This document shows positions 1 through 23,412 of a stretch of DNA of 55,425 nt, piece by piece. The stretch lies in NCBI RefSeq assembly GCF_009865405.1, contig NZ_WWJY01000010.1:1-55425 (forward strand), written 5' to 3'. The translations under genes and the position numbers were made by a program. The notes under the pieces are model-generated. The model saw nothing but the letters and a program-made list of their open reading frames with translations, was not told the DNA's origin and did not search any database. Each line of letters opens with the position of its first letter. Position 1 is the stretch's first letter. The stretch comes from Streptomyces sp. SID3212. GTDB lineage: Bacteria > Actinomycetota > Actinomycetes > Streptomycetales > Streptomycetaceae.

Positions 1-3000
1 ACCTTGCGGTTGTTCTTGAGTCGTTCGGGCTTGACGTCTCTTTCGACGCGGGAAAAAACTTCCGGGTAGCTCCGTGCTCGTTCCTCGCTCCAGTCATGGA
101 AGTTGATCACCCAGCGGCTCGCCGAGCAGTCCGGGCGGGAGTTGAGGTCCTCGCCGTTGAGGTAGGGGAAGAGAACGTCCTTGTTGCGAGGGTCGCGCTG
201 GATGAGGTCGGCTGCATGTTCGGGGGTGAGGACGAACCCCTTCCCCAGTACGTATGAACCGATGAATGCCTGTGGCCTGTCAGTTGTACGACCGTCGGGC
301 CCTCCGGAAGATGACCCCGCTACCAGACGGTATGGCCGTCCGGAAACCCGAGACCGCGGATCAAGTGACGAAGTGATACCCCGGACCACGACATCGTCCA
401 GCACACGAGTGGCCTCGTTACCCAAGCCCAGCTTGGTGGTCCACACGGCGCAGTACTCCAGCGCAGCAGACCTCGAAGGCCAGCGCGCGCTCTTCACGGC
501 TCGGCGTACCTCGATGCCGTCGTCGAGTAGCTGGTCGAGGCCAACCTCCCGAGTATCTCCCTGGGCGAGGGTGTTGGTAGCGATCAGGCCCGTCTGGCCG
601 CGTTCGCTGAGCAACTGGTGGGCCCGGAGTTCGAAGTACGCGACGAGGTCCGCGCTACCCCGCTGCCCGCGTCCCAGCCCAAGCACGAGGTACTCGCGGT
701 ACGCCTGTCCCAGAGTCCCCGTCAGCTTCTGACCGCCGAGGAAAGGCGGGTTGCCGATGATCGCGTCGAAGCCACCCTGCTCGGCTTCGAAGACCTCGGG
801 GAAGACGAGAGGCCAGTGCACTGGCAGGCGAACGAAGCCATCCGTGGGTAGGTCCTTGCTCAGCCACTCCAGAGCCCGCGTCCGAGCTTCGTGGATCACG
901 GGGTCGGAGTCGCGGACCTCATCTGAGGCGACCGTGCTGGCCAATTCCGCGGCCTTGAGGTAGAGCGAGTCACTGCCGCCCCTGGAAGCGAGGCCGGCTC
1001 CCGTCGTGAGGTCGCCGATCAGTCGTAGACGCTGAAGATGTTCGTTGCTGGCTGCGAGCAGGCGCCGTTTCTCGTCCAGGTCAGCGATGGAGTCGCTGTG
1101 GATTCCGGCGATGGCCTGACGGTTGCCCGACGCGCTATGGACACGGGCGCGCGCCTGTTCAGTCCACAGCTCGTCAAGGCGTCCCTCGTGTAGCTTGCGC
1201 CCTGCGACCGGATCCAGGTGAACGTTCTCGATCTGCTCCAGCTTGGCAACCCCCAGCAGCGAGTCCCCCGCCACCAACCGGTCGTCCAGGAACGTGAAGG
1301 GCCGTTCCGGGTCCATGGAGATCAGCCACAGCGACAGCTTGGCCATTTCCACGGCCATGGGGTTGATGTCCACCCCGTACAGGCAGTGCTCGATGATCAG
1401 GCGCCGGGCGCGGACCATCAGTGGGTCGCTCTCCGCGTCCGCCGCCGTCATCGCGCCTGTCTGGTCGCGGTGGCTGCCGCGGAAGGCCAGAGCCTCCTCG
1501 TCCTCTGCCTCGACCCAGGCGTCGACCAGTCGGTCCGCGAGGTAGCGGCAGGCGGCGACCAGGAAGGCGGCCGAACCCATCGCGATGTCGGCGACCTTGA
1601 GCTTCAGGATGTCGACCGCGCTGATGAGCTTCCACTGCTTGTCGTCCGCCGTCTGGAGCGGGCCCGGACGGTAGACGAGAGGTTCCAGGGCTCCCTCGGC
1701 GACCTGCTGGGCCAGGACACGTGGCGTGTAGTGGGTGCCGGTGTTCTTGCGGAGGCGGGACTCCGTGACGTACAGGCCGTCCGCCGGGATCACCACCGGC
1801 AGGCCACGCAGGTCGTCGCGGAGGAGGCCGTGAAAGGGGAGGATGCGCTCGGCCAGGTCGCGGTCGTTCTCGGTGACCGCGAGCAAGCGGTGAACGGCCT
1901 TGCCCCGCGCTTGGTCGTCGCCGGGGGCGAGTAGCTTCTCCATCTTCGACGCCGCAGCCGGCGGCCTGGGGTCTTTCAAGTGCTCGTACAGCTTCTTCGA
2001 CAAGCCCGGGAGGTTGGGCTTCTGGCCGGGCACCGCGCGTGGGCCCACTCCGAACGGGGCAGCCTGTTCCTCTAGTTCGGTCAGGCTCACCTCGTGTTCC
2101 AGGCCGGGCTTGCCGATGAGGCCGAGCACGGTGTCCTGGGCGCGCTTGCCGTCGTACGAGAGGAGGCCCTCGTACACGTAGCCGATCTGCTCGACGTCGA
2201 GGGCCCGGAAGGTCAGTCGGCGCCGCTCCTTGTTGACGACGACGAACTGCACCGAGTCGAGGACGTGCAGGACGGTCCGGTCGTCGATCGGGAGGAGGGA
2301 GGTGTGGCCGTCTGCGGCCCGCGTGGCGTCATTGTCCGTGGCGTCTGCGCCCTCCGGCACCGCCTCCAGCCAGGGGAAGCGCTTCGGGTCGAAGATCGAG
2401 CCGTCGTATGCGGGCAACGTGAGCAGGGGGTGGTCCACTCCGCCGTGGACGGCGTGGAAGAGGGCGATCAGCCGGTGCCAGGCGGCGGTGGTGTGGTCCA
2501 GGGAGTCCTCACCGTCCGCGCGGCGGCGTTTGTCCAGCGTCTCGTACAGCCGCCCGGCCGAATACGCCTCCGCGTAGAGCTCGTTGTCAGCGGGCAGCAG
2601 GCCCCGTTCCTCGGCGAAGAGGAGGAAGACGACGCGCATCATGACCGCGACGGCGCCCCGGTAGACCTCGCTCGCCGACACGCCTGACAGTCCCTTGCCG
2701 CCGCGTTTGACCATCCGGGTCTCGGCGCGGCCGATGGAGTCCACCAGGAGTTCGACGGCCTGGCGGACCTGGATGCCAAGGGCCTCGGTGACGTCTTCCT
2801 GGCCGTCCAGGCTCTCGCGCAGCAGCGCCGGCAGGAGTTCGTCTGCCGGGCGTCCGAAGAACCGACCGCGGCGGAGGAGAGACACCCAGGCGCGGACCGC
2901 CACCAAGTCGGCCGCCTCGTTCCAGGCGATGGTGTCGAAGGTGGCGCTTGTCGTGACGCCGCCGGGCGGTGCCCAGACCAGGGTCCACCAGCGGCCGTCG

Positions 3001-3620
3001 GTGACCAGGCCCAGCTCGACGCCGTGGTGGCGCAGGACGTGGGCGAGCCGGTCGACTCCGCTCGCAGCCCAGGAGTCGTCCCTGATACGGCGGGTTGGCA
3101 CGGTGTCGGGTGGCAGGACCATGCCGAGGATCGGTACGTGCTGGGCCCTGCCGGCAGCGTCCGGTTCGGCAGTGAGGTCGGTTCCGGGGCGGACGAGAGC
3201 GAAGTCGGGGCGCACGGTGGTGTCGGCCCCGGGCGGGCTGACCGCGAAACGATCCAGCAGAGTGTCGTCCTCGGCGAGGCTCTCGCCACTGTCGCACTGC
3301 CCGGCACCCTCCCGCAGATGCAGAGCCTCGTCCCATTCCAGCAGGGTGCGTAGTAGGAAGCCGATCCAGTCGAGCCGACCTGCGCCCTTGCGGTCGTCCT
3401 GCCAGATGCCGTGCTGGAGGCGGATGTCCGCACGACGCCCGCTGGGCACACCCTCCAGCTGTGGCCAGCTGCGCAGCAGGACCGGCAGGGTGAGGAACGG
3501 GCCGGACACCTCGACGAGGTTCAGCCAGTCCAGGTGCTGTTGCTTGCCGTCAGACGCCTTCGCGGCACGGATGGCGGCGGCGGAGGGGCGGCGGCTTCCG
3601 TTACGGGGCGCGTGGCTCAT
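1..3620 (-). CDS. drmMI: DISARM class 1 adenine-specific DNA methyltransferase DrmMI-like (3' end outside window)
   Basis: About 1,206 codons are visible and the frame stays open to the left edge, so the C-terminus is missing. The protein reads as a large Eco57I/PglX-class N6-adenine methylase that would mark host DNA. The SAM-binding motif I reads DIAMGSAAFLV near residues 679-689 (the family usually has SGAF). The catalytic motif IV NPPF is at about residues 957-960 within IIGNPPFLGG, and a target-recognition region follows. The N-terminal 300 residues resemble the endonuclease-like and helical part of such enzymes. The start ATG shares one base with the TGA of the upstream helicase gene (TGATG), so the two are probably translationally coupled. 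Helicase plus giant methylase in this order is the DISARM class 1 arrangement; drmA, drmB and drmC would be expected just beyond the window. A BREX-type PglX is the main alternative, but no other BREX gene is seen. Confidence 0.8.
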   Translation of the reverse strand, partial: MSHAPRNGSRRPSAAAIRAAKASDGKQQHLDWLNLVEVSGPFLTLPVLLRSWPQLEGVPSGRRADIRLQHGIWQDDRKGAGRLDWIGFLLRTLLEWDEALHLREGAGQCDSGESLAEDDTLLDRFAVSPPGADTTVRPDFALVRPGTDLTAEPDAAGRAQHVPILGMVLPPDTVPTRRIRDDSWAASGVDRLAHVLRHHGVELGLVTDGRWWTLVWAPPGGVTTSATFDTIAWNEAADLVAVRAWVSLLRRGRFFGRPADELLPALLRESLDGQEDVTEALGIQVRQAVELLVDSIGRAETRMVKRGGKGLSGVSASEVYRGAVAVMMRVVFLLFAEERGLLPADNELYAEAYSAGRLYETLDKRRRADGEDSLDHTTAAWHRLIALFHAVHGGVDHPLLTLPAYDGSIFDPKRFPWLEAVPEGADATDNDATRAADGHTSLLPIDDRTVLHVLDSVQFVVVNKERRRLTFRALDVEQIGYVYEGLLSYDGKRAQDTVLGLIGKPGLEHEVSLTELEEQAAPFGVGPRAVPGQKPNLPGLSKKLYEHLKDPRPPAAASKMEKLLAPGDDQARGKAVHRLLAVTENDRDLAERILPFHGLLRDDLRGLPVVIPADGLYVTESRLRKNTGTHYTPRVLAQQVAEGALEPLVYRPGPLQTADDKQWKLISAVDILKLKVADIAMGSAAFLVAACRYLADRLVDAWVEAEDEEALAFRGSHRDQTGAMTAADAESDPLMVRARRLIIEHCLYGVDINPMAVEMAKLSLWLISMDPERPFTFLDDRLVAGDSLLGVAKLEQIENVHLDPVAGRKLHEGRLDELWTEQARARVHSASGNRQAIAGIHSDSIADLDEKRRLLAASNEHLQRLRLIGDLTTGAGLASRGGSDSLYLKAAELASTVASDEVRDSDPVIHEARTRALEWLSKDLPTDGFVRLPVHWPLVFPEVFEAEQGGFDAIIGNPPFLGGQKLTGTLGQAYREYLVLGLGRGQRGSADLVAYFELRAHQLLSERGQTGLIATNTLAQGDTREVGLDQLLDDGIEVRRAVKSARWPSRSAALEYCAVWTTKLGLGNEATRVLDDVVVRGITSSLDPRSRVSGRPYRLVAGSSSGGPDGRTTDRPQAFIGSYVLGKGFVLTPEHAADLIQRDPRNKDVLFPYLNGEDLNSRPDCSASRWVINFHDWSEERARSYPEVFSRVERDVKPERLKNNRK

Positions 3621-6600
3621 CAGTAAGCCTCCTTGGCGGGGATGACGAAGACGACGGCGACAGGGAAGAGATGGTCCTGCGGGTCGCGGTAACGGGCAGA
3701 GATTGCCGCGAGTTCGCGCTCCCGCTCGTCCTCCACGCCGTCGAGCCGGGCCCGCCAGCGTTTGCGGTCGTCGGCGAGCTGGCGGCGTTCGTCGGGATCC
3801 TTCAGCTCGTCCAGGCCGAAGAGCGTGTCCGTGCTGGCCGTGCGGGAGGCCGCAGTGGCGGAGGAAGTTTCCCCGAGCCGGTTTCGCAGGGTGCGCTGGA
3901 GACGGTCGAGGGTGGCGTTGATGCGTTGCTCCTCATCGGCCTGCCGCTCGGCCAGCCGGTCCATCAGGGACGTCTTGCGTTCCTTGCCCCGTGCGTCGAC
4001 GGACTGGGTGAGGCCCTCATACGTCTTCGGCCAGCTCTGTTGGAGGCGGTGGAGCAGGCGCTCCTTGGCGGGGCGGCCCTCGGTGAGGGCGTGGTCCAGG
4101 ATCGAGGCGACCGCCTCCACGCCTCGCAACCGACGCTGCCAGCCGTTGTCGCCGAGCCAGCCGCCCGCGTGCAGGACCTCCTCATGGAGGCGCTGCCCGT
4201 CCGTGCCGACCAGCACGAAGCGGGCGTACGCGCCGACGAACGTGGTCTCCAGGGCCGGGTCGTCGCTGACGACGGCCGTGATCCGGCGCAGGTCGACGTT
4301 GTCCGCGTTCCACACGGCGGCGCGCAGCAGCCGCGTCGACATGGCGACCAGCGGATGGTTCAGATGAGCCAGCACGATGTCGGGGCGTCCCGAGGCCGCC
4401 TGCGCGTCGAAGGTAACCGGGCGCAGTACGTCGGGGCGGAGCTTGTCGGGCAGGCCACGGGTGGCGCGCTCCCAGGAGCCGGTCAGTGGCGGCACGGTGT
4501 ACAGGCCCTGCCGGAAGTCGTCCTCGGACGGTGCGTTCTCGTCGAGACACGGCACGAGGGGCTGCTGGCGGGCCAGGTTCAGCGCAGTGTTCACCACGCG
4601 AGCGACCCGGTCCGGGGTGATGCCGAGTTCTACGGTCGTCTGCTTCAGTTGGGCGTTGAGCCGCCGCACCTGCTCAGTGACGTTCTGTTCGGCGTCCACT
4701 TTCCCGCCCGTGGGACGGCCCTTGATCTTCTTCGCGCGGGCGTGCTCGATGTCGAAGTCGCTGAGCTGGCCCGTCATCCGCAGCTGTACCTTCTCAGCGA
4801 GTACGGCGTTAACCTCGCCGAGGTCCTCCTCCATCTGCGCGACTTTCCTCGCGATACGGGCGAGGAACTCCAAGTCGGCCTCGTACACGTCCGTCCTGGC
4901 CCTGTCCCAGGAAGCGCCGACGAAGTGCATGATCTGCGGGTTGTGGCGCTGGCCGTAGCGATCGATACGGCCGATGCGCTGTTCAAGCTTGTTGGGGTTG
5001 AACGGGATGTCGTAGTTGATCAAATACCGGCAGTGGTCCTGTAGGTCGATGCCCTCGCTGGCTGCGTCGGTGGCGATCAGGATGCGGACCATGCCCTCGG
5101 GGATGGTGGGCTGTTCCTGGAACGCGAGCCGGGTCTGCTCGCGCTCCTCGGCGTTCTTCCCGCCGTGGAGCGTGAGGACGCGGCCCTTCTGGGCCAGGCC
5201 CTCCTGCTGGAGCAGGTTCAGCAGCCAGTCCTGAGTGTCGCGGTACTCGGTGAACACGACGACCCGTTCGTTCCCCCACGTCCCACCGGTGAGGCAGATG
5301 GACTTGAGGGTCTTGACGAGCTCCTTCGCCTTGGCGTCGGGGGACGCCTGGTGGGCCTGGCCCCAGTGGGCCATCCGCTGGAGCAGCTCGGCCTCTTCCT
5401 CGGAGGTTCCCGGGGTGACCGTGGCGGCGCGGGTGATCGCGTCGTGCTCGGCCTCGGCCAGTTCCTCGTCGTCGAGCTCGGCGGCGTAGTCCTCGTACTG
5501 GGTGATCCACAGGGGGGTCTCGACCGGGGCCGGAACCTCCTTCTTCCCGCCGGACTTCGCCTTGGCGCGTACTGATTCGAGGTGGACGCCGACGGTGTGC
5601 GCGAAGGCTGCGGGGGAGGAGAACAGGCGCTTCTTCAGCAGCAGGGTGACCAGGTCGACGGCCTTCCGGCCGCCGCGCCGCTCGGGCGCGACGCGCTTCT
5701 TGCGCAGCTCGGCGTAGCGGGTGAGGAGGGCGTGGATCTCGCGCTCGGTGTCGGGGTACTCGACGGGCAGGGCTTTCGATTCGCGGATGTGGAACCGGGG
5801 GGTGCCGTCCTCGTTGGTGACGGAGGTCTTCAGACGTCGTACGACTGTGTCGTCGAGGGCGGCCTTGTCCGGCTCGCCGCCGCGGAAGAAGCGCTGGTTG
5901 TCGATCAGTTCCAGCAGGGCCGTGTATGACTCCTGGTAGCCGTTGTGAGGGGTTGCGGAGAGAAAGAGCCGGTGCTCGAAGTGGGGGGCGAGGCGTCGGA
6001 TCAGCTTGGTCTGCAGGGAGTCGACGGCGTAGATCTGCTTGGGTGCGCTCGGGGCGACATGGTGCGCCTCGTCCAGGATCAACAAATCGAAGGTACGGCG
6101 TCCGGGGCGGCCCGGCAGCTCCGTCGACCCGCCCGCAGGCAGCACCTCGTCGAGGAGCCGCTGGGCCTTGGGCGTGCGCAGCCAGGGAAGGCTCACGATG
6201 GTCAGGGGGAACACGCGGAACGGGTTCGCAGCGCTGCTGTGCGTGCGGCGCAACTCGGCGCAGCAGGCTGAGTCGACCACAGTGAAGTCGAGGCCGAATT
6301 TGTCGGCCATCTCATCGCGCCACTTGAGAGTGAGGCCAGCTGGGCAGACGACCATGACGCGGTGAGCCCGGCCGCGCAGCCGCAGCTCCTCGGCGACCAG
6401 TCCGGCCTCCACGGTCTTGCCGAGACCGACGTCGTCGGCGAGCAGCAGATTGACGCGGGGAGCACCGACGGCACGGGCGACCGGTTCCAGCTGGTACGGC
6501 TCGATGGCCACCCCTGACCGGAAGGGGGCCTGGAGCGTCTTCACGTCGGCGGAAGCGACAGCGGACCAGCGGACGGCGTCGAGGAAGGCCGCTAGTTGCT

Positions 6601-6868
6601 CCGGCGGATCGAACGCTCCGGTAGAGGCGTCGGGAAGGGAGCCGGCGGGAAGGACGCGGCGCCCCGGCTCGACCTCCCATATCACGGAGAGAGTATCGCC
6701 GTAGCGGCCATCGGCGACGGACTGTAGATGCACCACGGTGACATTGCCGACCGGGGCGGCTTCGACTCCGGACACCACCCAGTTCTGGCCGCGTACCTGG
6801 ACGAGCGCGTTCTCCTTCGGCGGCGCGACGATTGCGGAGGCTTCGGAAGTGCAGGTGGTTCCGGGCAT
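3620..6868 (-). CDS. drmD: SNF2-type DEAD/DEAH helicase, DISARM DrmD-like
   Basis: This is a 1,082-residue superfamily 2 ATPase. Walker A (DVGLGKT) lies near residues 146-152 and the DEAH box (LDEAHH) near 265-270. The C-terminal helicase lobe carries the SEGIDLQ and QRIGRIDRYGQ motifs near 605-665. A long charged helical tail follows. DrmD is the helicase that defines class 1 DISARM; it is thought to act with the other Drm proteins on incoming phage DNA. I placed the start at an ATG preceded by GGAGG with an 8-base gap; a GTG five codons upstream contains that ribosome site and is less likely. The stop overlaps the methylase start by one base. About 128 bp separate it from the kinase gene upstream. 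That gap is less GC-rich than the coding sequence but has no promoter I can name firmly. Confidence 0.8.
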   Translation of the reverse strand: MPGTTCTSEASAIVAPPKENALVQVRGQNWVVSGVEAAPVGNVTVVHLQSVADGRYGDTLSVIWEVEPGRRVLPAGSLPDASTGAFDPPEQLAAFLDAVRWSAVASADVKTLQAPFRSGVAIEPYQLEPVARAVGAPRVNLLLADDVGLGKTVEAGLVAEELRLRGRAHRVMVVCPAGLTLKWRDEMADKFGLDFTVVDSACCAELRRTHSSAANPFRVFPLTIVSLPWLRTPKAQRLLDEVLPAGGSTELPGRPGRRTFDLLILDEAHHVAPSAPKQIYAVDSLQTKLIRRLAPHFEHRLFLSATPHNGYQESYTALLELIDNQRFFRGGEPDKAALDDTVVRRLKTSVTNEDGTPRFHIRESKALPVEYPDTEREIHALLTRYAELRKKRVAPERRGGRKAVDLVTLLLKKRLFSSPAAFAHTVGVHLESVRAKAKSGGKKEVPAPVETPLWITQYEDYAAELDDEELAEAEHDAITRAATVTPGTSEEEAELLQRMAHWGQAHQASPDAKAKELVKTLKSICLTGGTWGNERVVVFTEYRDTQDWLLNLLQQEGLAQKGRVLTLHGGKNAEEREQTRLAFQEQPTIPEGMVRILIATDAASEGIDLQDHCRYLINYDIPFNPNKLEQRIGRIDRYGQRHNPQIMHFVGASWDRARTDVYEADLEFLARIARKVAQMEEDLGEVNAVLAEKVQLRMTGQLSDFDIEHARAKKIKGRPTGGKVDAEQNVTEQVRRLNAQLKQTTVELGITPDRVARVVNTALNLARQQPLVPCLDENAPSEDDFRQGLYTVPPLTGSWERATRGLPDKLRPDVLRPVTFDAQAASGRPDIVLAHLNHPLVAMSTRLLRAAVWNADNVDLRRITAVVSDDPALETTFVGAYARFVLVGTDGQRLHEEVLHAGGWLGDNGWQRRLRGVEAVASILDHALTEGRPAKERLLHRLQQSWPKTYEGLTQSVDARGKERKTSLMDRLAERQADEEQRINATLDRLQRTLRNRLGETSSATAASRTASTDTLFGLDELKDPDERRQLADDRKRWRARLDGVEDERERELAAISARYRDPQDHLFPVAVVFVIPAKEAY

Positions 6869-6996
6869 GCGGACATCCTCCACTATTTCTATCGGCGGGA
6901 CGGCGTTGCCTACCGGAGTGCCTCATATTGACGAGCGATTCGTTCATTGACCTAGTCACATAGTTCTGCCCTGCTTGTGGGTGGGTCGTCGGCGGA

Positions 6997-8652
6997 TCAC
7001 TGCGGGAGGCGGAGAGCGCGGGTCAGCCTGCCCAGGCGGCTGACCAGACGCTCGACCTCGGCATGGGCGGGATGGTTGGGAGGCAGCGCGGTCCGTTGGT
7101 CGTCGGCAAGGTGGCGCAGAGCCTCCAGGGCTTCACCGGCCGAGCCTGAGCCCGCCAGGAGGGTGGCGATGTCCCGACGGGTCTCCAACACTTCCGGATG
7201 TAACGGGGGAAACACCCCCTTCTGGAGTTCGAGTGCCTCGCGAAGTTCCAGGAGTGCGGCGGAGTTGTGCCCTAGCCGGCCAAGGCAGCGGGCTGCCATC
7301 ACCCGGCAAGCCGCGAGGTCCGCGTCCGGCGCGGAGCGGGCCGACGCCAGGGCTTCCGCGAGCTCCAGGCAGCCCTCCCGTGCCGCTTGCAGTTCCTGCG
7401 CTTCGAACTGCAACTGGAGGATGGCCAGTCGGCGGGAGACGACCTCTGGGTGGGAGGAGTCGAAACGCGGCAGTACCTTGTTGAGATCCTTGCCCAGTAG
7501 TTCCAGCGCCTGTGACAACCGTCCCTCTGCCGCAAGGCGTTGCGCGCGTTCGCGCAGGTCCGTCGATTCTGCTGACGGTCCGGCCCCGGATGTGGATGGC
7601 GGTTGCGCTGGCCGAACGGGAGGTTGTGCAGTTGCGAGCGGGGACGGGGCGGGCTCCGGAACGCGTGCGTGTGCTCTGTCCGGAGGCGGATCGTTCCGAA
7701 GGTCCGTGCCATCGTGGGGCGGGCGCGCGGTGGCTTTGCCGGGCCTCGGAGTTCCGGCGCGGGCGGACTTCGGCACCGCCTGCTCGGCCCAGGGCGCGAG
7801 GACCTCCCGGACTTCGGCTGCGTCAGCCGGCCGATCCTCCGGGCGCTTGGCGAGTAAGCGGGAGACTAGGTCACGCAGTTCGGCTGGTGCGTCGTCGCGC
7901 AGCTGATCCAGCGGTACCGGAGTATCCGCGATGTGCTGGATCACCAGGGCCAGCGGCTCGTCGGCCGTGAACGGCGGTCGGCCGCCCAGGAGCTCGTACA
8001 GCACGCAGCCCAGTGCGTACAGGTCACTGAGAGGAGTGGCTGCTTGCCCCTTGCCTTGTTCCGGAGAAATGAAGCCCGGAGTTCCGGCCACCATGCCCGC
8101 GTCGGTTAACCGTGGCCCGTCCGGTGGTTGCAGGGCAGTAGCAATACCGAAGTCGAGGACGCGTACCGTGCCGTCTGGCGTGAGCATCACGTTGCGGGGC
8201 GTCAGGTCCCGGTGGACGAAGCCGCGTCCGTGAGCCTGGACCAGCACGGAGCACACCTGGGCGCCCACGGCGGCGGCCCACTCCACGGGAAAGGGTCCGC
8301 GCTGGGCCACCAGCCGGTCCAGCGTGTGTCCGTACACGCGCTGCATGACCAGATAGAGCCGATTCGCTCGATGGGTGCCCGCATCATGGATGACCGGTAC
8401 GTACGGATGCTCCAGCTTGGCCATCAGTCGTGCTTCCCTGGTGAAGCGGACGACGGCGGGGTCCTGCGGATCGAGCCTGCGCGGCATCTTGGAGACAGCC
8501 GTCTGCGGTGTCAGCAGTTTCACGGCCACAGACCGGTCCAGCCGCTGATCGTACGCCGCCCATACCTCGCCCATGCCGCCTCTGCCGAGCAGCTCCGCCA
8601 GCTCGTAGCGGCCGTCGATCAGTTCGCCCCTCGTCAGGTGGTGGTCCCTCAT
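6997..8652 (-). CDS. Serine/threonine protein kinase with proline-rich linker and helical-repeat tail
   Basis: The product has 551 residues. The Hanks-type kinase domain spans about residues 15-285: glycine loop GRGGMGEV, ATP-binding Lys45, catalytic HRD at 147-149 and DFG at 167-169. The catalytic loop reads HRDLTPRN, so the usual lysine after HRDL is a threonine at 151. A Pro/Ala-rich linker (about 300-370) leads to a helical tail that looks TPR-like (repeated LRERAQRLAAEGRLSQAL-type helices), a likely protein-binding module. No membrane segment is seen, so it is probably cytosolic. The chosen ATG follows GGGGAAAG; a long upstream extension in the same frame has no kinase-like sequence. It is co-directional with the DISARM pair and ends about 130 bp before it, so it could regulate or sense for it; that link is inference. 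Confidence 0.85.
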   Translation of the reverse strand: MRDHHLTRGELIDGRYELAELLGRGGMGEVWAAYDQRLDRSVAVKLLTPQTAVSKMPRRLDPQDPAVVRFTREARLMAKLEHPYVPVIHDAGTHRANRLYLVMQRVYGHTLDRLVAQRGPFPVEWAAAVGAQVCSVLVQAHGRGFVHRDLTPRNVMLTPDGTVRVLDFGIATALQPPDGPRLTDAGMVAGTPGFISPEQGKGQAATPLSDLYALGCVLYELLGGRPPFTADEPLALVIQHIADTPVPLDQLRDDAPAELRDLVSRLLAKRPEDRPADAAEVREVLAPWAEQAVPKSARAGTPRPGKATARPPHDGTDLRNDPPPDRAHARVPEPAPSPLATAQPPVRPAQPPSTSGAGPSAESTDLRERAQRLAAEGRLSQALELLGKDLNKVLPRFDSSHPEVVSRRLAILQLQFEAQELQAAREGCLELAEALASARSAPDADLAACRVMAARCLGRLGHNSAALLELREALELQKGVFPPLHPEVLETRRDIATLLAGSGSAGEALEALRHLADDQRTALPPNHPAHAEVERLVSRLGRLTRALRLPQ

Positions 8653-8879
8653 CGCTTTCCCCGCGCCCTGTTGTCGAACCGGGTTGCGGATGGTCGCGGT
8701 GAAGCTGGGAATCGTCGGACGATGCGCTGCCGTTCGATGTTGGAGTCGAGGTGCTCCGAGCGAATGAACTTGAGGGCGACTGGATACAGATCGGTGCATT
8801 CCCGTAGCTGGCCCATCGCTCCGCGGCCGATCGGCGTGCGCATCTCGCAGCGATCGACGATGCGCCGTCCCCGAGCCAT
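8649..8879 (-). pseudogene. Fragment of a second serine/threonine kinase (N-lobe only)
   Basis: A 76-codon frame begins at an ATG with a good GGGGAGG ribosome site. It reads like the start of an actinobacterial kinase: a VDRCEMRTPIGRGAMGQ glycine loop, then VALKFIRSEHL with the ATP lysine, then ERQRIVRRF. About eight residues normally found between the loop and the lysine strand are missing. After RRF the similarity stops and unrelated sequence runs to the TGA. The stop overlaps the ATG of the intact kinase gene as ATGA. I read it as a decayed gene start left by recombination between kinase genes; it could still act as a translated leader for the downstream kinase. Confidence 0.6.
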
Positions 8880-8955
8880 GCGGGGGCCTCCCCAAACTAT
8901 GTACAGAACCGGTCCGTCCCGGACCATCACGGTGCGTTCAAGGTCGCTGACGATC

Positions 8956-8991
8956 CTAGGTCAGTACGAGAGGACCTGGGAGCGGACGAGC
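8956..8991 (+). other. Stretch resembling the 23S rRNA sarcin-ricin loop region
   Basis: The sequence contains AGTACGAGAGGACC followed by TGGGAGCGGACGA. From memory, actinobacterial 23S rRNA reads AGTACGAGAGGACC then GGGACGGACGAAC at the sarcin-ricin loop, so the match is close apart from two one-base insertions and one change. The similarity does not extend far on either side, so this is not an rRNA gene. It lies in the non-coding strip between the kinase fragment and the tRNA remnant. It may be a rearranged rRNA scrap or chance. Confidence 0.35.
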
Positions 8992-9210
8992 AAAACGGAA
9001 ACAGCCCCAAACTACCGACGCCCCACTTCACGCTAGTTAGGTGCCCTCGGAGCGACGCGTCCTGTCCGCCGAATACGTGAGCGATGCGTGAGCGGATGGG
9101 GCGGCACGCGTTGGACCAGGCGTTACGCGAATTGGAGTTGCACGTCTCTGACCAGGTGCAACGGGATGGGACTGCATGGCCTGGCATCCCTCGTCATGAT
9201 CTTGCAGGCC

Positions 9211-9252
9211 CTTGTAATGCGTAGGTCGTCGGTTCGAATCCGACAGGAGGCT
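9211..9252 (+). other. 3' half of tRNA-Thr(TGT): likely attachment site (attR)
   Basis: The stretch has an anticodon-loop sequence CTTGTAA, the 3' anticodon strand TGCGT, a full T-arm (GTCGG-TTCGAAT-CCGAC) and the acceptor strand AGGAGGC, then T as discriminator. The sequence just 5' cannot pair with TGCGT and contains no D-arm or 5' acceptor strand GCCTCCT, so only the 3' half is present. This is the signature left at one border by an integrase that recombines inside a tRNA gene. The complete gene should be at the far border of the island. Confidence 0.75.
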
Positions 9253-9260
9253 CACTTGCA

Positions 9261-9296
9261 AGCCCAGCTCAGACGGTGTCTGAGCTGGGCTTTTTT
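9261..9296 (+). terminator. Intrinsic terminator of the former tRNA-Thr locus
   Basis: A 13-bp perfect stem (AGCCCAGCTCAGA / TCTGAGCTGGGCT) with a five-base loop is followed by TTTTTT. It is 8 bp beyond the tRNA half, which is the usual place for a tRNA terminator, and marks the native chromosomal side. Confidence 0.85.
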
Positions 9297-9426
9297 GTTC
9301 GCATTGATCCCTGCGGCCGGTCGGCGCGTCCGTGCCCGGACTCTGGGCAGGGGCCGGGCAATCCTCCGTCCCAGGCGACCCGGGACGCCTAGACTGACCC
9401 GGCCGCCACGGAAGGAATGATCACAA

Positions 9427-9828
9427 ATGCGACCCGCGCGATTTCAGGATTTCACCCTCGACCTGGCCAAGAACACCCCCGGTGTGACCCGCGTGCAGAC
9501 TCTCGCGGATGCCGGGGACACCACCCACCCGTTCGGAGTGGCGATCACGAACGGCGACGGGGAGGCGCGGTGGCAGATCATCGGTCAGCTCGCGGACGGC
9601 GAGAAGCATGAGCAGCCTGATGTGCCCGTCAGCGGTGACCCGTTCGGGACCTGGACCGAGCCCAAGCCGGGGGATCACGAGGGCTGGCTCGTCGCGGTTC
9701 TCGCGCGGGCGGAGTCCCCTGAGATCGCGAACATCGAGCCCTGGTCGAGCCGTGCCGGCGGGAAGGAGTCGCCGGGGCTCACCGTCTTCTTCCACAACGG
9801 GGCGCGTGCTTTTGTGCGGAAGATCTGA
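9427..9828 (+). CDS. Protein of unknown function, 133 aa
   Basis: I do not recognise a family. The product is acidic, without signal peptide or membrane segment. It has a rather regular pattern of short strands and ends in a hydrophobic/basic segment (GLTVFFHNGARAFVRKI), which suggests a small beta-rich fold. The ATG follows GGAAGGA at a spacing of about 10. A TAGACT hexamer about 30 bp upstream could be the -10 of its promoter. It is the first chromosomal gene after the island border and is followed closely by a GC-rich inverted repeat (CCCGGCC/GGCCGGG) and a 48-aa gene on the same strand. Confidence 0.7.
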   Translation: MRPARFQDFTLDLAKNTPGVTRVQTLADAGDTTHPFGVAITNGDGEARWQIIGQLADGEKHEQPDVPVSGDPFGTWTEPKPGDHEGWLVAVLARAESPEIANIEPWSSRAGGKESPGLTVFFHNGARAFVRKI

Positions 9829-9897
9829 CCTTCCCGGCCGCCGGCCGGGGAGGAGTGCACCACCTGTCAGGCACCACCTTTGCGAGGAGGAGCTGAT

Positions 9898-10044
9898 ATG
9901 GCACTACGGTCCGATCCCGCCCGGGTCGAGGGGACGTGCCCGTCATGCGGGCAGTCGGTCGGCTCGCCGCCCGGCTCGCCGACGACGGGGCATCAGAAAC
10001 CCCACCCGAGCCGTGAGACCTGCCCGGGAGGCACCACCCAGTAA
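9898..10044 (+). CDS. Small cysteine-containing protein, 48 aa
   Basis: A short frame starts at an ATG preceded by GAGGAGGAGCTGAT, a strong ribosome site at good spacing. The peptide has a CPSC pair at residues 14-17 and another Cys at 42, with two His at 32 and 36, so it could bind one metal ion, although the second half is not a standard zinc ribbon. It is rich in Pro, Gly and Ser. It lies 69 bp after the 133-aa gene and before a clear terminator, so the two are probably one transcription unit. The function is unknown. The ribosome site and the terminator are the main evidence that it is real. Confidence 0.55.
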   Translation: MALRSDPARVEGTCPSCGQSVGSPPGSPTTGHQKPHPSRETCPGGTTQ

Positions 10045-10102
10045 GGCACGGGAGTCCTGATCGGCACCCTGCGGGTGTAGTCACGAACCTGAGCGACAAG
10101 AG

Positions 10103-10139
10103 AGCCCCTGCCCACCAGCGCCCGGTGGGCGGGGCTTTT
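10103..10139 (+). terminator. Intrinsic terminator after the small-gene pair
   Basis: A 6 + 7 bp stem (AGCCCC/GGGGCT and GCCCACC/GGTGGGC, one bulged T) has a seven-base loop and ends in TTTT. It closes the unit of the 133-aa and 48-aa genes. Confidence 0.7.
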
Positions 10140-10355
10140 GCGTGGGTTGTGGTCTCGGTCCTGGTCGCAGCAGTGGGCCCGGGGCCGGCGATGGAGGCGG
10201 CTCCCATACGGCGGTGCCGGAACCGCGATCGGTTTCGGCTGCGAAACCCGGGGCACCGGCAGGGATCGGGGGGCGGCAGTCCGTACTGCCTCACTTCCGT
10301 CCAGGGTTCGGTCATCGGCTCGGTCGACGCGACGCGGGATCGGTAGGAGGGTGAC

Positions 10356-10481
10356 ATGGCATTCAGTCAGTTGTTGGCCAAGGGAGCCGGGGAGGGCACC
10401 CCACCCTTCTGGATCGTTGCCATCGCCCTGATCCTTGTCGTCGGGGTGGTGTTCTTGGTGAGCAAGGTGCGTAAGGGGTAG
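10356..10481 (+). CDS. Small single-pass membrane protein, 41 aa
   Basis: The ATG follows GGTAGGAGGGTGAC, a very good ribosome site. The peptide has a polar N-terminus, one membrane segment (FWIVAIALILVVGVVFLV, residues 18-35) and a basic tail SKVRKG, so the tail is probably cytoplasmic. No family is recognised. It stands alone, with over 200 bp of sequence on its left in which I see no gene, and converges on the DUF2090 gene. Small membrane proteins of this kind are common next to mobile regions, but nothing here shows a role. Confidence 0.6.
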   Translation: MAFSQLLAKGAGEGTPPFWIVAIALILVVGVVFLVSKVRKG

Positions 10482-10530
10482 TGCCGCGAGCCATACGTTT
10501 GTGGCCGTGAACGGTCGGATGGGGGTTCTT

Positions 10531-11487
10531 CTACGCCTTGCCGTTTCGCGCTTCGACGTAATATCGCGCGTAGCCCACGTACGCCTCTGTGATGGAAGCG
10601 CGTGTCTCGTCGCGGGTCGATTGTCCGTGGACGTAATTCTCCAGGGCCTCCCACCAGATGCTCCGGCCGATGGCGAAACCCATGAATCCCTCCACGGGTG
10701 CGGCGATCTCCAGCCAGTGGTCCAGCTTCTCCCTGGGGGCGTGACGGCCCAGGACGACGCAGCGTGCGTTCCGGGACCCGCGTCGGGCGGTACGGGCCAC
10801 GGACTCGGCGTCCTCGCGGGTCTCCAGGCCCTCCACCTTCCAGATCGCGGGCTCCACGCCCCGGTCCTGGAGGTACTCCATCACCCGCACCGTCGCCGCG
10901 CCGCGCAGCTCCTTGTCGTACCGGTCGGCTGAGCCGTCGACCGCCGCGAGGTCGGCTTCCGTGGCCGGTACCAGCAGTTCGAGGATGAGGCTGCGGCCCA
11001 CGGAATTCCCCCAGGACACCACCCGTGCCAGCCGCTCGGCCTGTGCGTTCCGGTCGGATTCCCCGTAGCCCGGATTGTCACGTACCAGGACCTTCGAGAA
11101 CGCGGCCGGAAAGTACTCGGCATGCTGCTGCCACTCATCGCCGTATTCGAAATGGAACCAGTCCTGGCCGCTCTCCTCGATCGGCATCGCGAGGTCGATC
11201 TGCCCGCTCTGCACCGCCAGCTCCGCTGCCGTTGCCCCGTAGCGTTCGTCGATGAGCAGGCCGGCCCGGGTCGATTCCGGGAATTGCGGCAGGGCGTCCA
11301 CGACCGCTTCGTACACCAGCAATTTGCCGTCGGCGATCCTCGCCGCCTGTGATGGTGTCGGGGTGGCGGTCAATTGGTAAAGGTCGGTTTCGAGGCTCGC
11401 GCGGTGGTCAACGGCGCAGATCAGGAGATCGTCATGACTCGGTGCGTTCTCAGGATTGGCGGGATTGTTCTGCGCTGTCCAGGACAA
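10531..11487 (-). CDS. DUF2090 (IolC-type aldolase-like) protein
   Basis: The product has 318 residues, close to the length of stand-alone DUF2090 proteins. These resemble class I aldolases and occur fused to IolC sugar kinases. Features of a TIM barrel are visible: the N-terminal LLICAVDHRASL strand, GLLIDERYGA, LAMPIEESG, LILELLVPA with lysine-poor strands, and IWKVEGLETREDAESVA, where the lysine could be the Schiff-base residue. The likely substrate is a keto-sugar phosphate, but no inositol or sugar gene is next to it, so the specificity is open. The start is a TTG seven bases after AAGGAGG, which makes this unusual start codon convincing. It converges with the small membrane protein gene. 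Confidence 0.75.
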   Translation of the reverse strand: MSWTAQNNPANPENAPSHDDLLICAVDHRASLETDLYQLTATPTPSQAARIADGKLLVYEAVVDALPQFPESTRAGLLIDERYGATAAELAVQSGQIDLAMPIEESGQDWFHFEYGDEWQQHAEYFPAAFSKVLVRDNPGYGESDRNAQAERLARVVSWGNSVGRSLILELLVPATEADLAAVDGSADRYDKELRGAATVRVMEYLQDRGVEPAIWKVEGLETREDAESVARTARRGSRNARCVVLGRHAPREKLDHWLEIAAPVEGFMGFAIGRSIWWEALENYVHGQSTRDETRASITEAYVGYARYYVEARNGKA

Positions 11488-11715
11488 ATTAATCCCTCCT
11501 TGCTATTCCCCCTGAATTTTAACCGGGTGTGGGGAGGTGTGCCACGCACGGGGCGCCGCGTACAACGCCTGCCGTACGCCGAAGAGCACATTCCCGGGGG
11601 CCGTCTCCGGCGTCCGCCCGCCGGTCCCGGGCGGGGTGCCGCGCGGGTGCTCCGATCCCGACAGGAGAGCTCTCTTCGTGGCTGCCTTCCTCTACCGAAT
11701 CGGTCATCGCCCCCG

Positions 11716-11948
11716 ATGCCGGGTACGGAGTCGCAGAACGCGTTCGACCTGCTGGACCAGCGCTTCCCCTCCGGCAACTCCGAGGGCGCGGACGCCCGCC
11801 TCGTCTTCGTCGCGCCGGACGGCCGGAAGGTCACCGCGTCGCGCTACAAGGAAGCCTCGGTCGGCCAGGACGCGATGGTCGGGACGGTCACCGAGGGCGC
11901 GGTATCACCGAAGGCGCGGTCGCGGACGCCGCGCCGTGGGCGGCCTAG
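11716..11948 (+). pseudogene. Remnant of an MMPL/RND-type transporter gene
   Basis: The readable part (PGTESQNAFDLLDQRFP, then ADARLVFVAPDGRKVTA) matches the first periplasmic stretch after TM1 of MMPL lipid/drug exporters. No membrane segments remain on either side. The frame is lost at a 17-bp tandem duplication (TCACCGAGGGCGCGGT at 11888-11903 and again at 11905-11920). The shifted frame ends in a TAG a few codons later. A companion phrase SSWLPSSTESV lies just upstream in another frame. It touches the end of the MarR gene, so it may once have been that regulator's partner. Confidence 0.55.
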
Positions 11949-12454
11949 CCGGGGTCAGGGCGGGTGCGCGTGCCCAACTCCGCGGCGGCGTCCGCGTAGT
12001 CGACCAGCAGCCGGGCGAATTCGAGGCGTTTGGCCTGGGGCCAGTCGCGGGTGATGTGCTCGAAGGCCTGGCGGTGCTGGCTGCTGAAGCGGTCGCGCAG
12101 GGCGATGCCCTCGGGGGTGAGGAGGAGCACCGTACGGCGGCCGTCGGTCTGGGAGGCGGCCCGTACGAGAAGGCCGGCCGTGATGCAGTCGCTCACCATC
12201 CGGCTGGCGACGGAGGAGTCGACGGTCAGCTGGTAGGCGATGCCGCCGACCGTCATCTCGCCGTCGGCCTCGTCGACGACGTTGATGACCTGGTTCCGCG
12301 CCATGTCCTTGCGCGTGACCGGCGGGTCGACGTCCACCAGGGCGGTACGGCGCCGCAGCCGGGCGAATGCCGCGCCGACCGCGTCCAGCAGCGCGTCGTC
12401 CTGAGTCTCGTTGCGCCCGGTCTCGTTCCGCCCGGTCTCGTTTCCCCTGGTCAC
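11945..12454 (-). CDS. MarR-family transcriptional regulator
   Basis: This 169-residue protein has the winged-helix layout of MarR: a helical dimerisation end, the helix-turn-helix region MTVGGIAYQLTVDSSVASRM (about 67-86), the wing with ASQTDGRRTVLLLTPEG (about 99-115), and C-terminal helices. The start is GTG after a weak AAGG. The N-terminus carries three GNET/GRNET repeats encoded by 15-bp direct repeats, so a shorter start is possible. It is divergent from the amidohydrolase gene and very likely controls that promoter and its own through sites in the 156-bp gap. Confidence 0.85.
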   Translation of the reverse strand: MTRGNETGRNETGRNETQDDALLDAVGAAFARLRRRTALVDVDPPVTRKDMARNQVINVVDEADGEMTVGGIAYQLTVDSSVASRMVSDCITAGLLVRAASQTDGRRTVLLLTPEGIALRDRFSSQHRQAFEHITRDWPQAKRLEFARLLVDYADAAAELGTRTRPDPG

Positions 12455-12483
12455 TTTGACACCTTAGTCCCAGGTCGCTGTCG

Positions 12484-12519
12484 AACGCAATTACGTGCAA
12501 CAATGCATGCATCTGCGTT
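12484..12519. promoter_or_regulatory. Inverted repeats in the MarR/amidohydrolase divergent promoter region
   Basis: AACGCA and TGCGTT form the outer arms of an inverted repeat around a 10-bp palindrome ATGCATGCAT (12503-12512). TGCA half-sites recur inside it. Its place between a MarR gene and its divergent neighbour makes it the natural operator candidate; the exact site is not proven. Confidence 0.45.
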
Positions 12520-12610
12520 TCGCAGGAGATGGCAGAAGACGGCAGAAGACCGGTGGGTGCCGGGAGACCCGGCTCACCGCGACGGATCGACAACGACGGG
12601 AAACACCCCC

Positions 12611-13849
12611 ATGAGCACAACGGCCATCATCAACGCGCGGGTCTTCGACGGGGACCGGCCGCTGGAGGCGACCACCGTCGTCTTCGACCGCACCGGGATC
12701 CTCGCGGTGGGCGGGGAGGCACCCGCCGGAGCGGAGATCGTGGACGCCGCGGGCGGGACGCTGCTGCCCGGCCTGATCGACGCGCACGTACACACCAACG
12801 AGCAGGCTCTCGCCCTGGATCTGCGGTTCGGTGTGACCACGGCGCTGGAGATGCAGGGCAACCACACCGCCGGCAACCGCGCGCACATCACGGAGAACGA
12901 CGCGGTGGCCGACATCCGCTCCTCCGGGTTCGCCATCACGCCTCCCGGTGGTCACCCGAGCGAGCTGTTCCCGGAGGGATTCCGCCCCGGGCCGCCTCCC
13001 GGCGCGCGCGGCCCCAAGCCGTCGGAACCGGCGCCCCTGATGCCGTTCTCCACCACCCCCGAAGAAGCGGTCGGGTTCATCCCGCAGCTGGTCGAACGCG
13101 GCTCGGACTACATCAAGTTCATGGTGGACGACGGTTCGGTGGAGGGGCACCCGGGCCTGCCGATGCTCGACCGGGCGACGCTGAGCGCGGGGGTCGCCGA
13201 GGCCAAGAAGCACGGCATGCTCACGGTCGCCCACGCGCTGACGATCGAGGCGACCCGGATGGCGATCGAGTCGGGCATCGACGGTCTCGTGCACCTGTTC
13301 ATGGAGGGCCCGCACACCGAGGAGATCATCACCCTGATCCGCGACGCCGGTGCGTTCGTGGTGCCGTGTGTGGTGCTGAACGCCTCGATGATGGGCATCA
13401 CGGGCGACGAGCTGGCCGACGACCCGCGGGTGGCGTCGCGCCTGGACGAGCAGTGGATGAAGACGCTGCGCAGCAGCTTCGGCCACTACCCGCAGGGCAG
13501 GCTCGGTGATGTGTTCGGGTCGGTGCGCGCGCTGCGGGACGCCGGGGTCGACCTCCTGGTCGGTACGGACGCGTCCGCGCCGTTCGAGTTCCTGGGCGGT
13601 CTGGCCCACGGGGCGAGCGTCCACCACGAACTCCAGTATCTCGTCCGGGCCGGTCTGACCCCGGTGGAGGCGCTGCACGCGGCCACTTCCACCACCGCCC
13701 GCCGCTTCGGGCTAACAGACCGGGGCCGTATCGCCGAAGGACTGCGCGCCGACCTCCTTCTGGTCGACGGCGACCCCACCACGACCATCTCCGACACCCT
13801 CAACACCCGCGCCGTCTGGCGCCGGGGCAGCCGCCTCACCCACGCCTGA
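12611..13849 (+). CDS. Amidohydrolase family protein (imidazolonepropionase/prolidase-like), cytosolic
   Basis: The 412-residue enzyme has the metal ligands of binuclear amidohydrolases: HVH at 59-61 (DAHVHTN), a probable carboxylated lysine in SDYIKFMVDDGS, His in TVAHALT, His in DGLVHLF and the catalytic Asp in LVGTDAS. It closes with the small beta-domain motif ADLLLVDGDP. It would cleave a C-N bond in an amide, lactam or dipeptide; the substrate is unknown. I chose the ATG reading MSTTAIINAR because the first beta-strand starts there; the frame is open far upstream but that part is not protein-like. It is divergent from the MarR gene. A close paralogue with a Tat signal lies 2.7 kb downstream. 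Confidence 0.85.
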   Translation: MSTTAIINARVFDGDRPLEATTVVFDRTGILAVGGEAPAGAEIVDAAGGTLLPGLIDAHVHTNEQALALDLRFGVTTALEMQGNHTAGNRAHITENDAVADIRSSGFAITPPGGHPSELFPEGFRPGPPPGARGPKPSEPAPLMPFSTTPEEAVGFIPQLVERGSDYIKFMVDDGSVEGHPGLPMLDRATLSAGVAEAKKHGMLTVAHALTIEATRMAIESGIDGLVHLFMEGPHTEEIITLIRDAGAFVVPCVVLNASMMGITGDELADDPRVASRLDEQWMKTLRSSFGHYPQGRLGDVFGSVRALRDAGVDLLVGTDASAPFEFLGGLAHGASVHHELQYLVRAGLTPVEALHAATSTTARRFGLTDRGRIAEGLRADLLLVDGDPTTTISDTLNTRAVWRRGSRLTHA

Positions 13850-13854
13850 GCACC

Positions 13855-13898
13855 CCCCGCCGGGAGACCGCTGCACGGGCGCGCGGCCCCCGGCGGGG
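13855..13898 (+). terminator. Possible terminator after the amidohydrolase gene
   Basis: CCCCGCCGGG and CCCGGCGGGG form a 10-bp stem around a 24-base loop, with no T-tract. The rest of the 205-bp gap up to the histidine kinase is C-rich low-complexity sequence in which I see no gene. Confidence 0.35.
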
Positions 13899-14054
13899 CT
13901 CGGTCCGGGCCGTCGTCCTTCCCCGTCCCTCGCCGTCCCTCCCCGTCCGCCCCCGGCCGCTCCCGGTCCTCCCGGTCGCCGCCGTCGCCGCGTGGCGGCT
14001 CAAGCGTTCCGACGTGCGAGCGGCGCGCGTACGAATGACAGAGAGCGGAAAGCC

Positions 14055-15521: not shown

Positions 15522-16189
15522 CCACGGTCCTGATCGTCGACGACCACGCGCTGCAACGCCTCGGTTTCCGCATGCTGCTCGACGCCCACCCCGGCACGGA
15601 CGTCGTCGGAGAGGCCGCGAACGGCGCCGAAGCCGTACGGCAGGCGGCCGAACTGCGCCCCGACGTGGTGCTGATGGACATCCGTATGCCCGGCGTGGAC
15701 GGCATCGAGGCCACCCGCCGCATCGTGGCGTCCGGCGGCCGGTCCCGGGTCCTCATGCTCACGACCTTCGACCTGGACGAGTACGCGTACGGCGCGCTGC
15801 GCGCCGGTGCCAGCGGCTTCCTCCTCAAGGACGCGCTGCCGGGCGAACTCGTCGCCGGTATCAGGGCGGTGGCGGAGGGGGACGCCGTCGCGGCCCCGGC
15901 GCTGACGCGCCGCCTGCTGGACACGTTCGTACGGCAGGGCCCGCCACCGGCCGACCGGGCGGGCGGCGCGGGCAGCGATCCCCGTCTGGCCGGGCTCAGC
16001 GAGCGGGAGGGCGAGGTGCTGCTGGCGATGGCGCAGGGCCTCACGAACACCGAGATCGCCGCGCGGCTGGTGCTGGCCGAATCCACCGTCAAGACCCATG
16101 TCGGCAAGGTGCTTGCCAGGATCGGCGCCCGTGACCGGGTCCAGGCCGTCATCATCGCGTACGAGGCGGGCCTCGTCGGAACCCGCTGA
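15518..16189 (+). CDS. Two-component response regulator, NarL/LuxR type
   Basis: The 223-residue protein starts at a GTG overlapping the kinase stop, with GGAGAGA ten bases upstream. The receiver domain shows DD at 8-9, the phospho-acceptor Asp54 (VVLMDIRMPG), Thr in LMLTTFD and Lys in FLLKDA. The C-terminal LuxR helix-turn-helix reads LSEREGEVLLAMAQGLTN then TEIAARLVLAESTVKTHV. It should be phosphorylated by the kinase encoded just before it. The nearest target is probably the Tat-lipoprotein amidohydrolase gene 320 bp downstream, but no defined binding site can be named. Confidence 0.9.
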   Translation: MTTVLIVDDHALQRLGFRMLLDAHPGTDVVGEAANGAEAVRQAAELRPDVVLMDIRMPGVDGIEATRRIVASGGRSRVLMLTTFDLDEYAYGALRAGASGFLLKDALPGELVAGIRAVAEGDAVAAPALTRRLLDTFVRQGPPPADRAGGAGSDPRLAGLSEREGEVLLAMAQGLTNTEIAARLVLAESTVKTHVGKVLARIGARDRVQAVIIAYEAGLVGTR

Positions 16190-17889: not shown

Positions 17890-17906
17890 CGCCACTGCCC
17901 GTCTCT

Positions 17907-23410: not shown

Positions 23411-23412
23411 GC

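What the first reader, a model, noticed from the sequence alone, without database searches (positions are those of the whole stretch)
1..8652. DISARM class 1 genes with an adjacent Ser/Thr kinase on an integrated island
Seen: SNF2 helicase and giant adenine methylase joined by a TGATG overlap, with a Hanks kinase on the same strand about 130 bp upstream. Known: drmD-drmMI is the start of class 1 DISARM, and a kinase (PglW) belongs to the related Pgl defence of Streptomyces; kinases are not part of the described core DISARM set. Inference: the kinase may sense infection or control the nuclease side.
Basis: partly seen in the sequence, partly recalled or inferred. Interest (0 to 1): 0.75.

Follow-up and report, generated by a model that had tools for sequence, protein, structure and literature searches.

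The report
Kinase-linked, specificity-switching DISARM defence island
A Streptomyces genome carries a complete set of genes for the DISARM virus defence together with its own signalling kinase and a DNA segment that looks able to flip and change which DNA sites the defence recognises, so both its control and its targeting can now be tested.

Summary
The window is the left edge of a contig. Its first 253 bp recur perfectly at one end of contig C620 of the same genome, which carries drmA, drmB and drmC; drmD, drmA, drmB and drmC all pass NCBI's curated cut-offs. Together the contigs form a roughly 39.9 kb island at tRNA-Thr, with integrase and relaxase genes. The kinase is not a random neighbour: 24 of 74 surveyed drmD loci carry a kinase just upstream, and in a 72-row drmD tree they form one clade (23 of 23; 0 of 49 outside). 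Most of these loci (21 of 24) have two tandem kinases; in this window the first is a deletion remnant and only the second is intact. The contig break coincides with a perfect inverted repeat inside drmMI. A second, inverted copy of its C-terminal, probably specificity-determining part and a tyrosine recombinase lie beyond it. At E <= 1e-60 that recombinase occurs in 3 of 392 Streptomyces genomes, all with the inverted copy. Best reading: a new variant of class 1 DISARM with an accessory kinase and a switchable methylase specificity. Kinase control and inversion are inferred, not shown.

The parts
1..253 (-). One arm of a perfect 253-bp inverted repeat inside drmMI; also the overlap that joins this contig to C620
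   Evidence: 100% identical to C620 (operon orientation) 1-253 and, inverted, to 1671-1923
3..3620 (-). drmMI, adenine methylase (first 1206 aa; 1443 aa when read on into C620)
   Evidence: PADLOC DrmMI 1434 bits; Pfam Eco57I and MmeI_Mtase; NPPF motif and joined length
3620..6868 (-). drmD, SNF2-like helicase (likely ATG 6868; the longer ORF starts at GTG 6883)
   Evidence: NCBIfam DrmD 1342.8 bits, cut-off 610
6884..6996 (-). K2-drmD gap with a conserved promoter-like stretch (GTCAAY, about 15 bp, then a hexamer ending in TAT)
   Evidence: Nine gap sequences compared by eye; not tested as a promoter
6997..8652 (-). K2, Hanks Ser/Thr kinase (551 aa) with a C-terminal helical-repeat domain
   Evidence: Pfam Pkinase 140.5 bits (scanned as the longer ORF to 8895); VAVK, HRD and DFG motifs present; AlphaFold mean pLDDT 77.8: kinase fold to about residue 289, disordered linker, helices 366-547
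8649..8879 (-). Remnant of K1, a first kinase lost by an about 727-bp internal deletion relative to L036
   Evidence: DNA alignment breaks at nearly the same place against L036, L037, L038 and L041; weak kinase match of 48 bits
9211..9253 (+). 43-bp copy of the tRNA-Thr(TGT) 3' end: right end of the island (att site)
   Evidence: The same 43 bp end the intact tRNA-Thr on C67; C620 starts with its last 32 bp

Best explanation
It is the right-hand part of a complete class 1 DISARM gene set on a tRNA-Thr island. Shown by sequence: K1 remnant-K2-drmD-drmMI on this contig, and a second inverted C-terminal drmMI copy, a tyrosine recombinase, drmA, drmB and drmC on C620. Inferred: K2 is an accessory regulator that switches or licenses DISARM by phosphorylating one of its proteins when infection is sensed, as PglW is proposed to do in Pgl. 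Inferred: the recombinase inverts the segment between the repeats inside drmMI, exchanging the C-terminal specificity part and so the methylation motif that marks self DNA.
For: DISARM membership. Contig join. Kinase clade: 23 of 23 rows inside, 0 of 49 outside, SH-aLRT 99, 0 of 500 shuffles as low. K2 distances follow DrmD distances over 23 loci (r 0.96, 0 of 2000 permutations; 0.97 and 0.78 within the two sub-clades) and K2 is under purifying selection (dN/dS 0.12-0.25 in 13 pairs). Catalytic motifs present in 24 of 24 K2. 17 of 17 kinase genomes given to one search have a DrmA, in 14 on the same contig and strand 6-42 kb beyond drmD. Inversion: repeats 98.6-100% identical within own, G110, L036 and L040 against 83-90% between these four; two different C-terminal parts per genome, both open, in own, G110, L036 and G225; recombinase in 3 of 392 genomes, all with the inverted copy.
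Against: No phosphorylation target is known and nothing here tests control. Two loci keep both kinases while DISARM genes decay: G289, where both kinase frames are open, and G085, whose drmD is truncated. Three loci, this one included, have K2 but no full K1. A conserved promoter-like stretch suggests that drmD can be transcribed without the kinases. No isolate was seen with both orientations, and no pair of genomes with swapped C-terminal parts was found. Most kinase loci lack the cassette. In G225 only 41 bp are perfect, with a further 359 bp at 93.9%. The AlphaFold model of the methylase half was poor (mean pLDDT 58.9), so a domain border at the repeat is not confirmed. The C2-C620 join rests on a repeat.
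Confidence: 0.5

Rival explanations
1. The kinases are a separate anti-phage unit (an abortive-infection kinase such as PD-T4-6 or Stk2) that shares the island and is inherited with DISARM but works alone.
For: PADLOC's best kinase matches are PD-T4-6 models (314 bits). Two loci with decayed DISARM genes keep both kinases. A promoter-like stretch separates K2 from drmD. Stk2 of Staphylococcus epidermidis is a described abortive-infection kinase (PMC12926258, passage seen).
Against: Same order and strand, and K2 ends 109-218 bp before the located start of the drmD match, in 24 of 24 loci. Of the 11 genomes that score best with K2's own C-terminal part, 10 have it beside drmD and the other is the decayed G289 locus. 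No K2 match on plasmids at 1e-60. PADLOC gives no curated cut-off, and many PD-T4-6 models match this PknB-like kinase.
Confidence: 0.3
2. The kinase is a chance chromosomal neighbour with a housekeeping role.
For: Streptomyces genomes hold many Ser/Thr kinases (recalled); the K2 C-terminal part finds matches in 342 of 392 genomes at 1e-5, most of the listed ones at about 26-40% identity.
Against: Fixed association over a clade whose DrmD go down to about 63% identity with this one.
Confidence: 0.04
3. drmD-drmMI is a free-standing type IIG-like restriction pair, not DISARM.
For: Several DrmD-DrmMI pairs of 40-45% identity (for example L068-L071, L075) show no drmA-sized gene directly behind drmMI; drmA was not sought elsewhere in those genomes.
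Against: drmA, drmB and drmC found for this locus; the N-terminal part of DrmMI shows no ExK by eye in the 13 sequences compared.
Confidence: 0.06
4. The inverted drmMI part is a dead duplication or an assembly product, not a switch.
For: The own assembly is fragmented (1270 contigs) and L040 has an N gap there. 37 of 42 informative loci lack the repeat.
Against: The same layout lies on one contig in G110, G225 and L036; the inverted copies keep an open frame of 263-340 aa in the four genomes that could be read; repeats are more alike within than between genomes; the recombinase was found only there.
Confidence: 0.15

Closest known systems
DISARM class 1 (drmD, drmMI, drmA, drmB, drmC; gene list recalled, names by NCBIfam and PADLOC)
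   Same: All five genes present; four pass NCBI cut-offs, DrmMI by PADLOC
   Different: Kinase(s) upstream of drmD; in the 10 kinase loci put together, drmMI and drmA are 2.2-37.7 kb apart, in G110 by an inverted-copy and recombinase cassette, whereas in L067, L072 and L045 drmA follows drmMI directly
Pgl / BREX type 2 (PglW kinase, PglX methylase)
   Same: Hanks kinase in a system with an adenine methylase in Streptomyces; PglW kinase activity is needed for protection and Pgl is phase-variable (PMC4365076, passages seen)
   Different: K2 far below the PglW cut-off; Pgl phase variation is attributed to a G tract in pglX, not to inversion
MADS (kinase MAD6)
   Same: Kinase in a methylation-linked defence system
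   Different: K2 scores 140.8 bits against a MAD6 cut-off of 460
Shufflon-like phase-variable type I R-M specificity genes (recalled)
   Same: Inverted repeats and a site-specific recombinase exchange target-recognition parts
   Different: Here inside a DISARM methylase gene

Membership tests
DISARM class 1 | DrmD helicase | tested here: met
   NF038317 1342.8 bits, cut-off 610
DISARM class 1 | DrmMI adenine methylase | tested here: met
   PADLOC DrmMI 1434 bits, no curated cut-off; no NCBIfam DrmMI match
DISARM class 1 | DrmA helicase | tested here: met
   C620:23815-27708, NF038325 1387.6 bits, cut-off 950
DISARM class 1 | DrmB (DUF1998/MZB) | tested here: met
   C620:21884-24046, NF038324 685.8 bits, cut-off 240
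DISARM class 1 | DrmC phospholipase D-like protein | tested here: met
   C620:21100-21870, NF038319 240.8 bits, cut-off 133
DISARM class 1 | Genes in one locus | tested here: inconclusive
   Two contigs joined through a 253-bp repeat; the same layout lies on one contig in G110
DISARM class 1 | Protects against phage and methylates host DNA | not testable with these tools
   Needs plating and methylome data
Pgl / BREX type 2 | PglW kinase | tested here: not met
   K2 70.7 bits, cut-off 990
Pgl / BREX type 2 | PglZ and PglY | not tested
   No targeted search was made
MADS | MAD6 kinase | tested here: not met
   140.8 bits, cut-off 460
PD-T4-6 kinase | Kinase protein itself gives phage defence | tested here: inconclusive
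   314 bits in PADLOC, no curated cut-off given; function not testable here

The most novel reading that the evidence does not exclude
A kinase-gated, specificity-switching DISARM: K2 (originally a K1-K2 pair) turns the system on by phosphorylation, while a dedicated recombinase flips drmMI between two target-recognition parts, so that members of one clone carry different self-marks and escape phage that acquired one mark.
Probability: 0.35. Interest if true: 0.82.

Novelty: new variant of a known kind. Interest (0 to 1): 0.62.

Why it matters
How DISARM avoids attacking its own cell and how it is controlled are open questions. A lineage in which a kinase has stayed with the operon gives a direct genetic handle on control, and an invertible specificity part would put DISARM among defences that vary their self-mark inside one population. 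Open-access searches listed no paper that, by title or start of abstract, reports DISARM with a kinase or with an invertible methylase; the lists were capped, and the original DISARM paper is not held, so this is not proof of novelty.

Tried and rejected
A first MZB search of the own genome hit C473 and C620. C473 lies beside what read as topA and tmk (by eye) and was set aside as housekeeping; at first I took the C620 hit, too, to be unlikely as a DISARM gene, which overturned. A chance kinase was rejected.

The K2 C-terminal reverse search is only partly specific: from about E 1e-13 on, the drmD-linked K2 copies mix with other TPR kinases. G289, the one unlinked match among the 11 best genomes, proved to be a decayed DISARM locus.

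A search for the island's right flank in 41 genomes including the own gave, outside the own genome, one sizeable partial match, in G019, beside tRNA-His and not tRNA-Thr; no empty site is shown. AlphaFold of the DrmMI C-terminal half was too poor to use. A PDB fold search of the K2 model gave PknA/PknB-like and other kinase chains among the 50 rows shown. The class-wide search gave about 1.5 kb upstream per locus, enough for K2 only, and shares genomes. L046 and L081 were left out of the tree (distant; partial). The tree used the quick method, which itself warns of long branches meeting among the non-kinase rows. The collections may overlap, though all 72 tree rows differ. In one search the own locus failed the 85% filter because BLAST extended the repeat into diverged sequence; its 253-bp perfect repeat is. 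G122 has a near-full second DrmMI in inverted orientation at 48% identity, without such a repeat.
Full report
What the window shows. The first 8.9 kb of the window hold, all on the minus strand, a kinase, a SNF2 helicase and a large adenine methylase open at the contig edge. Their best PADLOC matches are PD-T4-6 (314 bits), DrmD (1377 bits) and DrmMI (1434 bits; best type IIG model 667.5). The helicase stop and methylase start overlap as TGATG. The kinase ends at 6997; the likelier drmD start, ATG 6868 behind GGAGGA (read by eye), gives a 128-bp gap.

The missing genes. The window is contig C2 of a 7.98 Mb, 1270-contig genome and starts at its first base. Contig C733 repeats C2 over the 19,999 bases compared, an assembly redundancy. 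Searching the genome with a full-length DrmMI found two more C-terminal copies on contig C620, in opposite orientations, and a DrmA search found drmA on the same contig. Scans gave DrmA, DrmB and DrmC on C620, each above NCBI's curated cut-off (1387.6 against 950; 685.8 against 240; 240.8 against 133), as is DrmD (1342.8 against 610) (PADLOC).

How the contigs join. The window's bases 1-253 are 100% identical to the end of C620 and also, inverted, to a second place about 1.7 kb further in. Thus C2 stops at the end of a perfect 253-bp inverted repeat inside drmMI, where an assembler working from short reads would break. Read on through the overlap, drmMI is 1443 aa. C620's other end starts with the last 32 bp of tRNA-Thr; the intact tRNA-Thr(TGT) ends contig C67, and its 43-bp 3' end recurs at window 9211-9253. 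The island would be 30,875 + 9,253 - 253 = 39,875 bp. A phage-type integrase, a MobA-like relaxase and an AAA ATPase lie towards its left end. C123 carries another, nearly identical copy of the tRNA-Thr 3' end, so a second element at the same tRNA, and another order of contigs, cannot be excluded. No empty site was found.

The kinase survey. DrmD relatives came from 392 Streptomyces genomes (35 with a match at 1e-100), 394 genomes of the class, partly the same ones (30 with a match), and the named genome collection (12 loci). Of 74 loci with a located DrmD, window included, 24 carry a kinase directly upstream on the same strand and 50 carry none; 21 of the 24 carry two kinases in tandem (K1, K2), while the window, L035 and L048 carry K2 as the only full kinase. 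Upstream sequence looked at was up to 3.4 kb, but about 1.5 kb in the 26 loci. In a tree of 72 DrmD (L046 and L081 left out) the 23 kinase rows form one group, SH-aLRT 99, one change, 0 of 500 shuffles as low; all 23 are Streptomyces. The tree method was the quick one. Distances of K2 follow those of DrmD over 23 loci (r 0.96; 0 of 2000 permutations).

Kinase condition. K2 keeps its VAVK-like, HRD and DFG motifs in 24 of 24 loci; of 21 K1 scanned, L036 shows none of them and L041 lacks the HRD match. dN/dS by a simple method is 0.12-0.25 for K2 (13 pairs), 0.05-0.21 for DrmD (13 pairs) and 0.13-0.64 for K1 (9 pairs). In the window K1 is a remnant: against L036 about 727 bp are gone. The K2 model has a canonical kinase fold, a disordered linker and a helical-repeat tail (mean pLDDT 77.8); its best solved matches are PknB and PknA. 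Against a tight functional link, G289 keeps open frames of both kinases beside fragments of drmD, drmA and drmC, and G085 keeps both beside a truncated drmD.

Where the rest of DISARM lies in relatives. The 17 kinase genomes among the 23 given to all have a DrmA match at 1e-240 or better; in 14 it lies on the same contig and strand, 6-42 kb beyond drmD (distances worked out by hand). In the 10 of these put together, drmMI and drmA are 2.2-37.7 kb apart. In G110 that space holds only the cassette described next; in six others it holds, among other genes, GmrSD, a UvrD-like helicase, a protein of about 2,000 aa and a 279-308 aa neighbour.

The invertible cassette. In the own genome, G110, L036, L040 and G225 an inverted copy of the drmMI 3' part faces the gene, followed by a tyrosine recombinase (Pfam Phage_integrase for the own copy; relatives). 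The repeats are 253 bp at 100%, 266 bp at 99.6%, 347 bp at 98.6%, 321 bp at 100% and, in G225, 41 bp at 100% plus 359 bp at 93.9%. Between own, G110, L036 and L040 the same stretch is 83-90% identical in the six pairs. The two C-terminal parts in one genome are 48-51% identical in own, G110 and L036 (64% in G225), and both are open to a stop; L040's segment is an N gap and says nothing. Among the genomes compared no C-terminal part equals the silent part of another. Of 47 loci checked, 5 have too little sequence downstream, 5 have the repeat (own) and 37 have none apart from short hairpins. The recombinase at 1e-60 occurs in 3 of 392 genomes, G000, G110 and G225, all with the inverted copy, and in 4 of 32 locus sequences searched, again those with it. 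The contig of L035 also breaks off within this stretch.

Interpretation. Shown: identity of the genes, the clade-wide kinase association, the inverted-copy layout and the company the recombinase keeps. Inferred: that K2 controls DISARM (by analogy with PglW, whose kinase activity is needed for Pgl; PMC4365076, passages seen) and that the segment inverts in the living cell. PglW and MAD6 membership was tested and not met. DrmC is described as dispensable, and DrmD as one of the less conserved components whose interplay with DrmAB awaits study (PMC9142583, passages seen).

Novelty. Seven library searches listed nothing that by title or start of abstract reports DISARM with a kinase or an invertible DrmMI; some searches showed 25 of 70, 20 of 91 and 20 of 117 papers. 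Six papers were searched for terms and seen as passages only: PMC9142583, PMC12458937 (no 'kinase', no 'drmD'), PMC12707154, PMC9716671, PMC12926258 and PMC7205518; in the passages shown, kinases appear as PglW of BREX or as Stk2, not with DISARM. The original DISARM paper is not held. I file the finding as a new variant of class 1 DISARM.

Noticed in passing
L063:4053-5273, L065:4157-5308, and the same place in L064 and L066: In the sister clade without kinases a conserved protein of about 383-418 aa, with no Pfam or NCBIfam match for the L063 copy, sits directly upstream of drmD; in L063 DUF4365 and GmrSD genes precede it.
   Followed up: partly
L146 (G289:C24) 7983-23783: Decayed kinase-DISARM locus: K1 and K2 frames are open, drmD is an 83-aa stretch, and drmA and drmC are fragments.
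   Followed up: partly
L081 (G085:C128): drmD truncated to about its first third, with both kinases and drmMI still in place.
   Followed up: no
L004:9629-10981 (C620:19628-20980): 450-aa protein behind drmC with no Pfam, NCBIfam or PADLOC match; 97% identical copy in G110, none in the other 31 locus sequences searched.
   Followed up: partly
G157, G230, G179, G065, G340, G009 between drmMI and drmA: Conserved protein of about 1,930-2,032 aa with a neighbour of 279-308 aa, GmrSD and a UvrD-like gene inside the DISARM locus.
   Followed up: no
G000:C733: Contig identical to C2 over the 19,999 bases compared; redundant assembly.
   Followed up: partly
G000:C123:6639-6661: Another copy of the tRNA-Thr 3' end, possibly the edge of a second element at the same tRNA.
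   Followed up: partly
L038:4213-5933: drmB- and drmC-like matches lie upstream of the kinases in opposite orientation, a rearranged locus.
   Followed up: no
G122 (L063/L110): A near-full second DrmMI in inverted orientation at 48% identity between drmMI and drmA, without the near-perfect repeat.
   Followed up: no
window 6884-6996: Promoter-like stretch conserved between K2 and drmD in nine close loci (by eye).
   Followed up: partly
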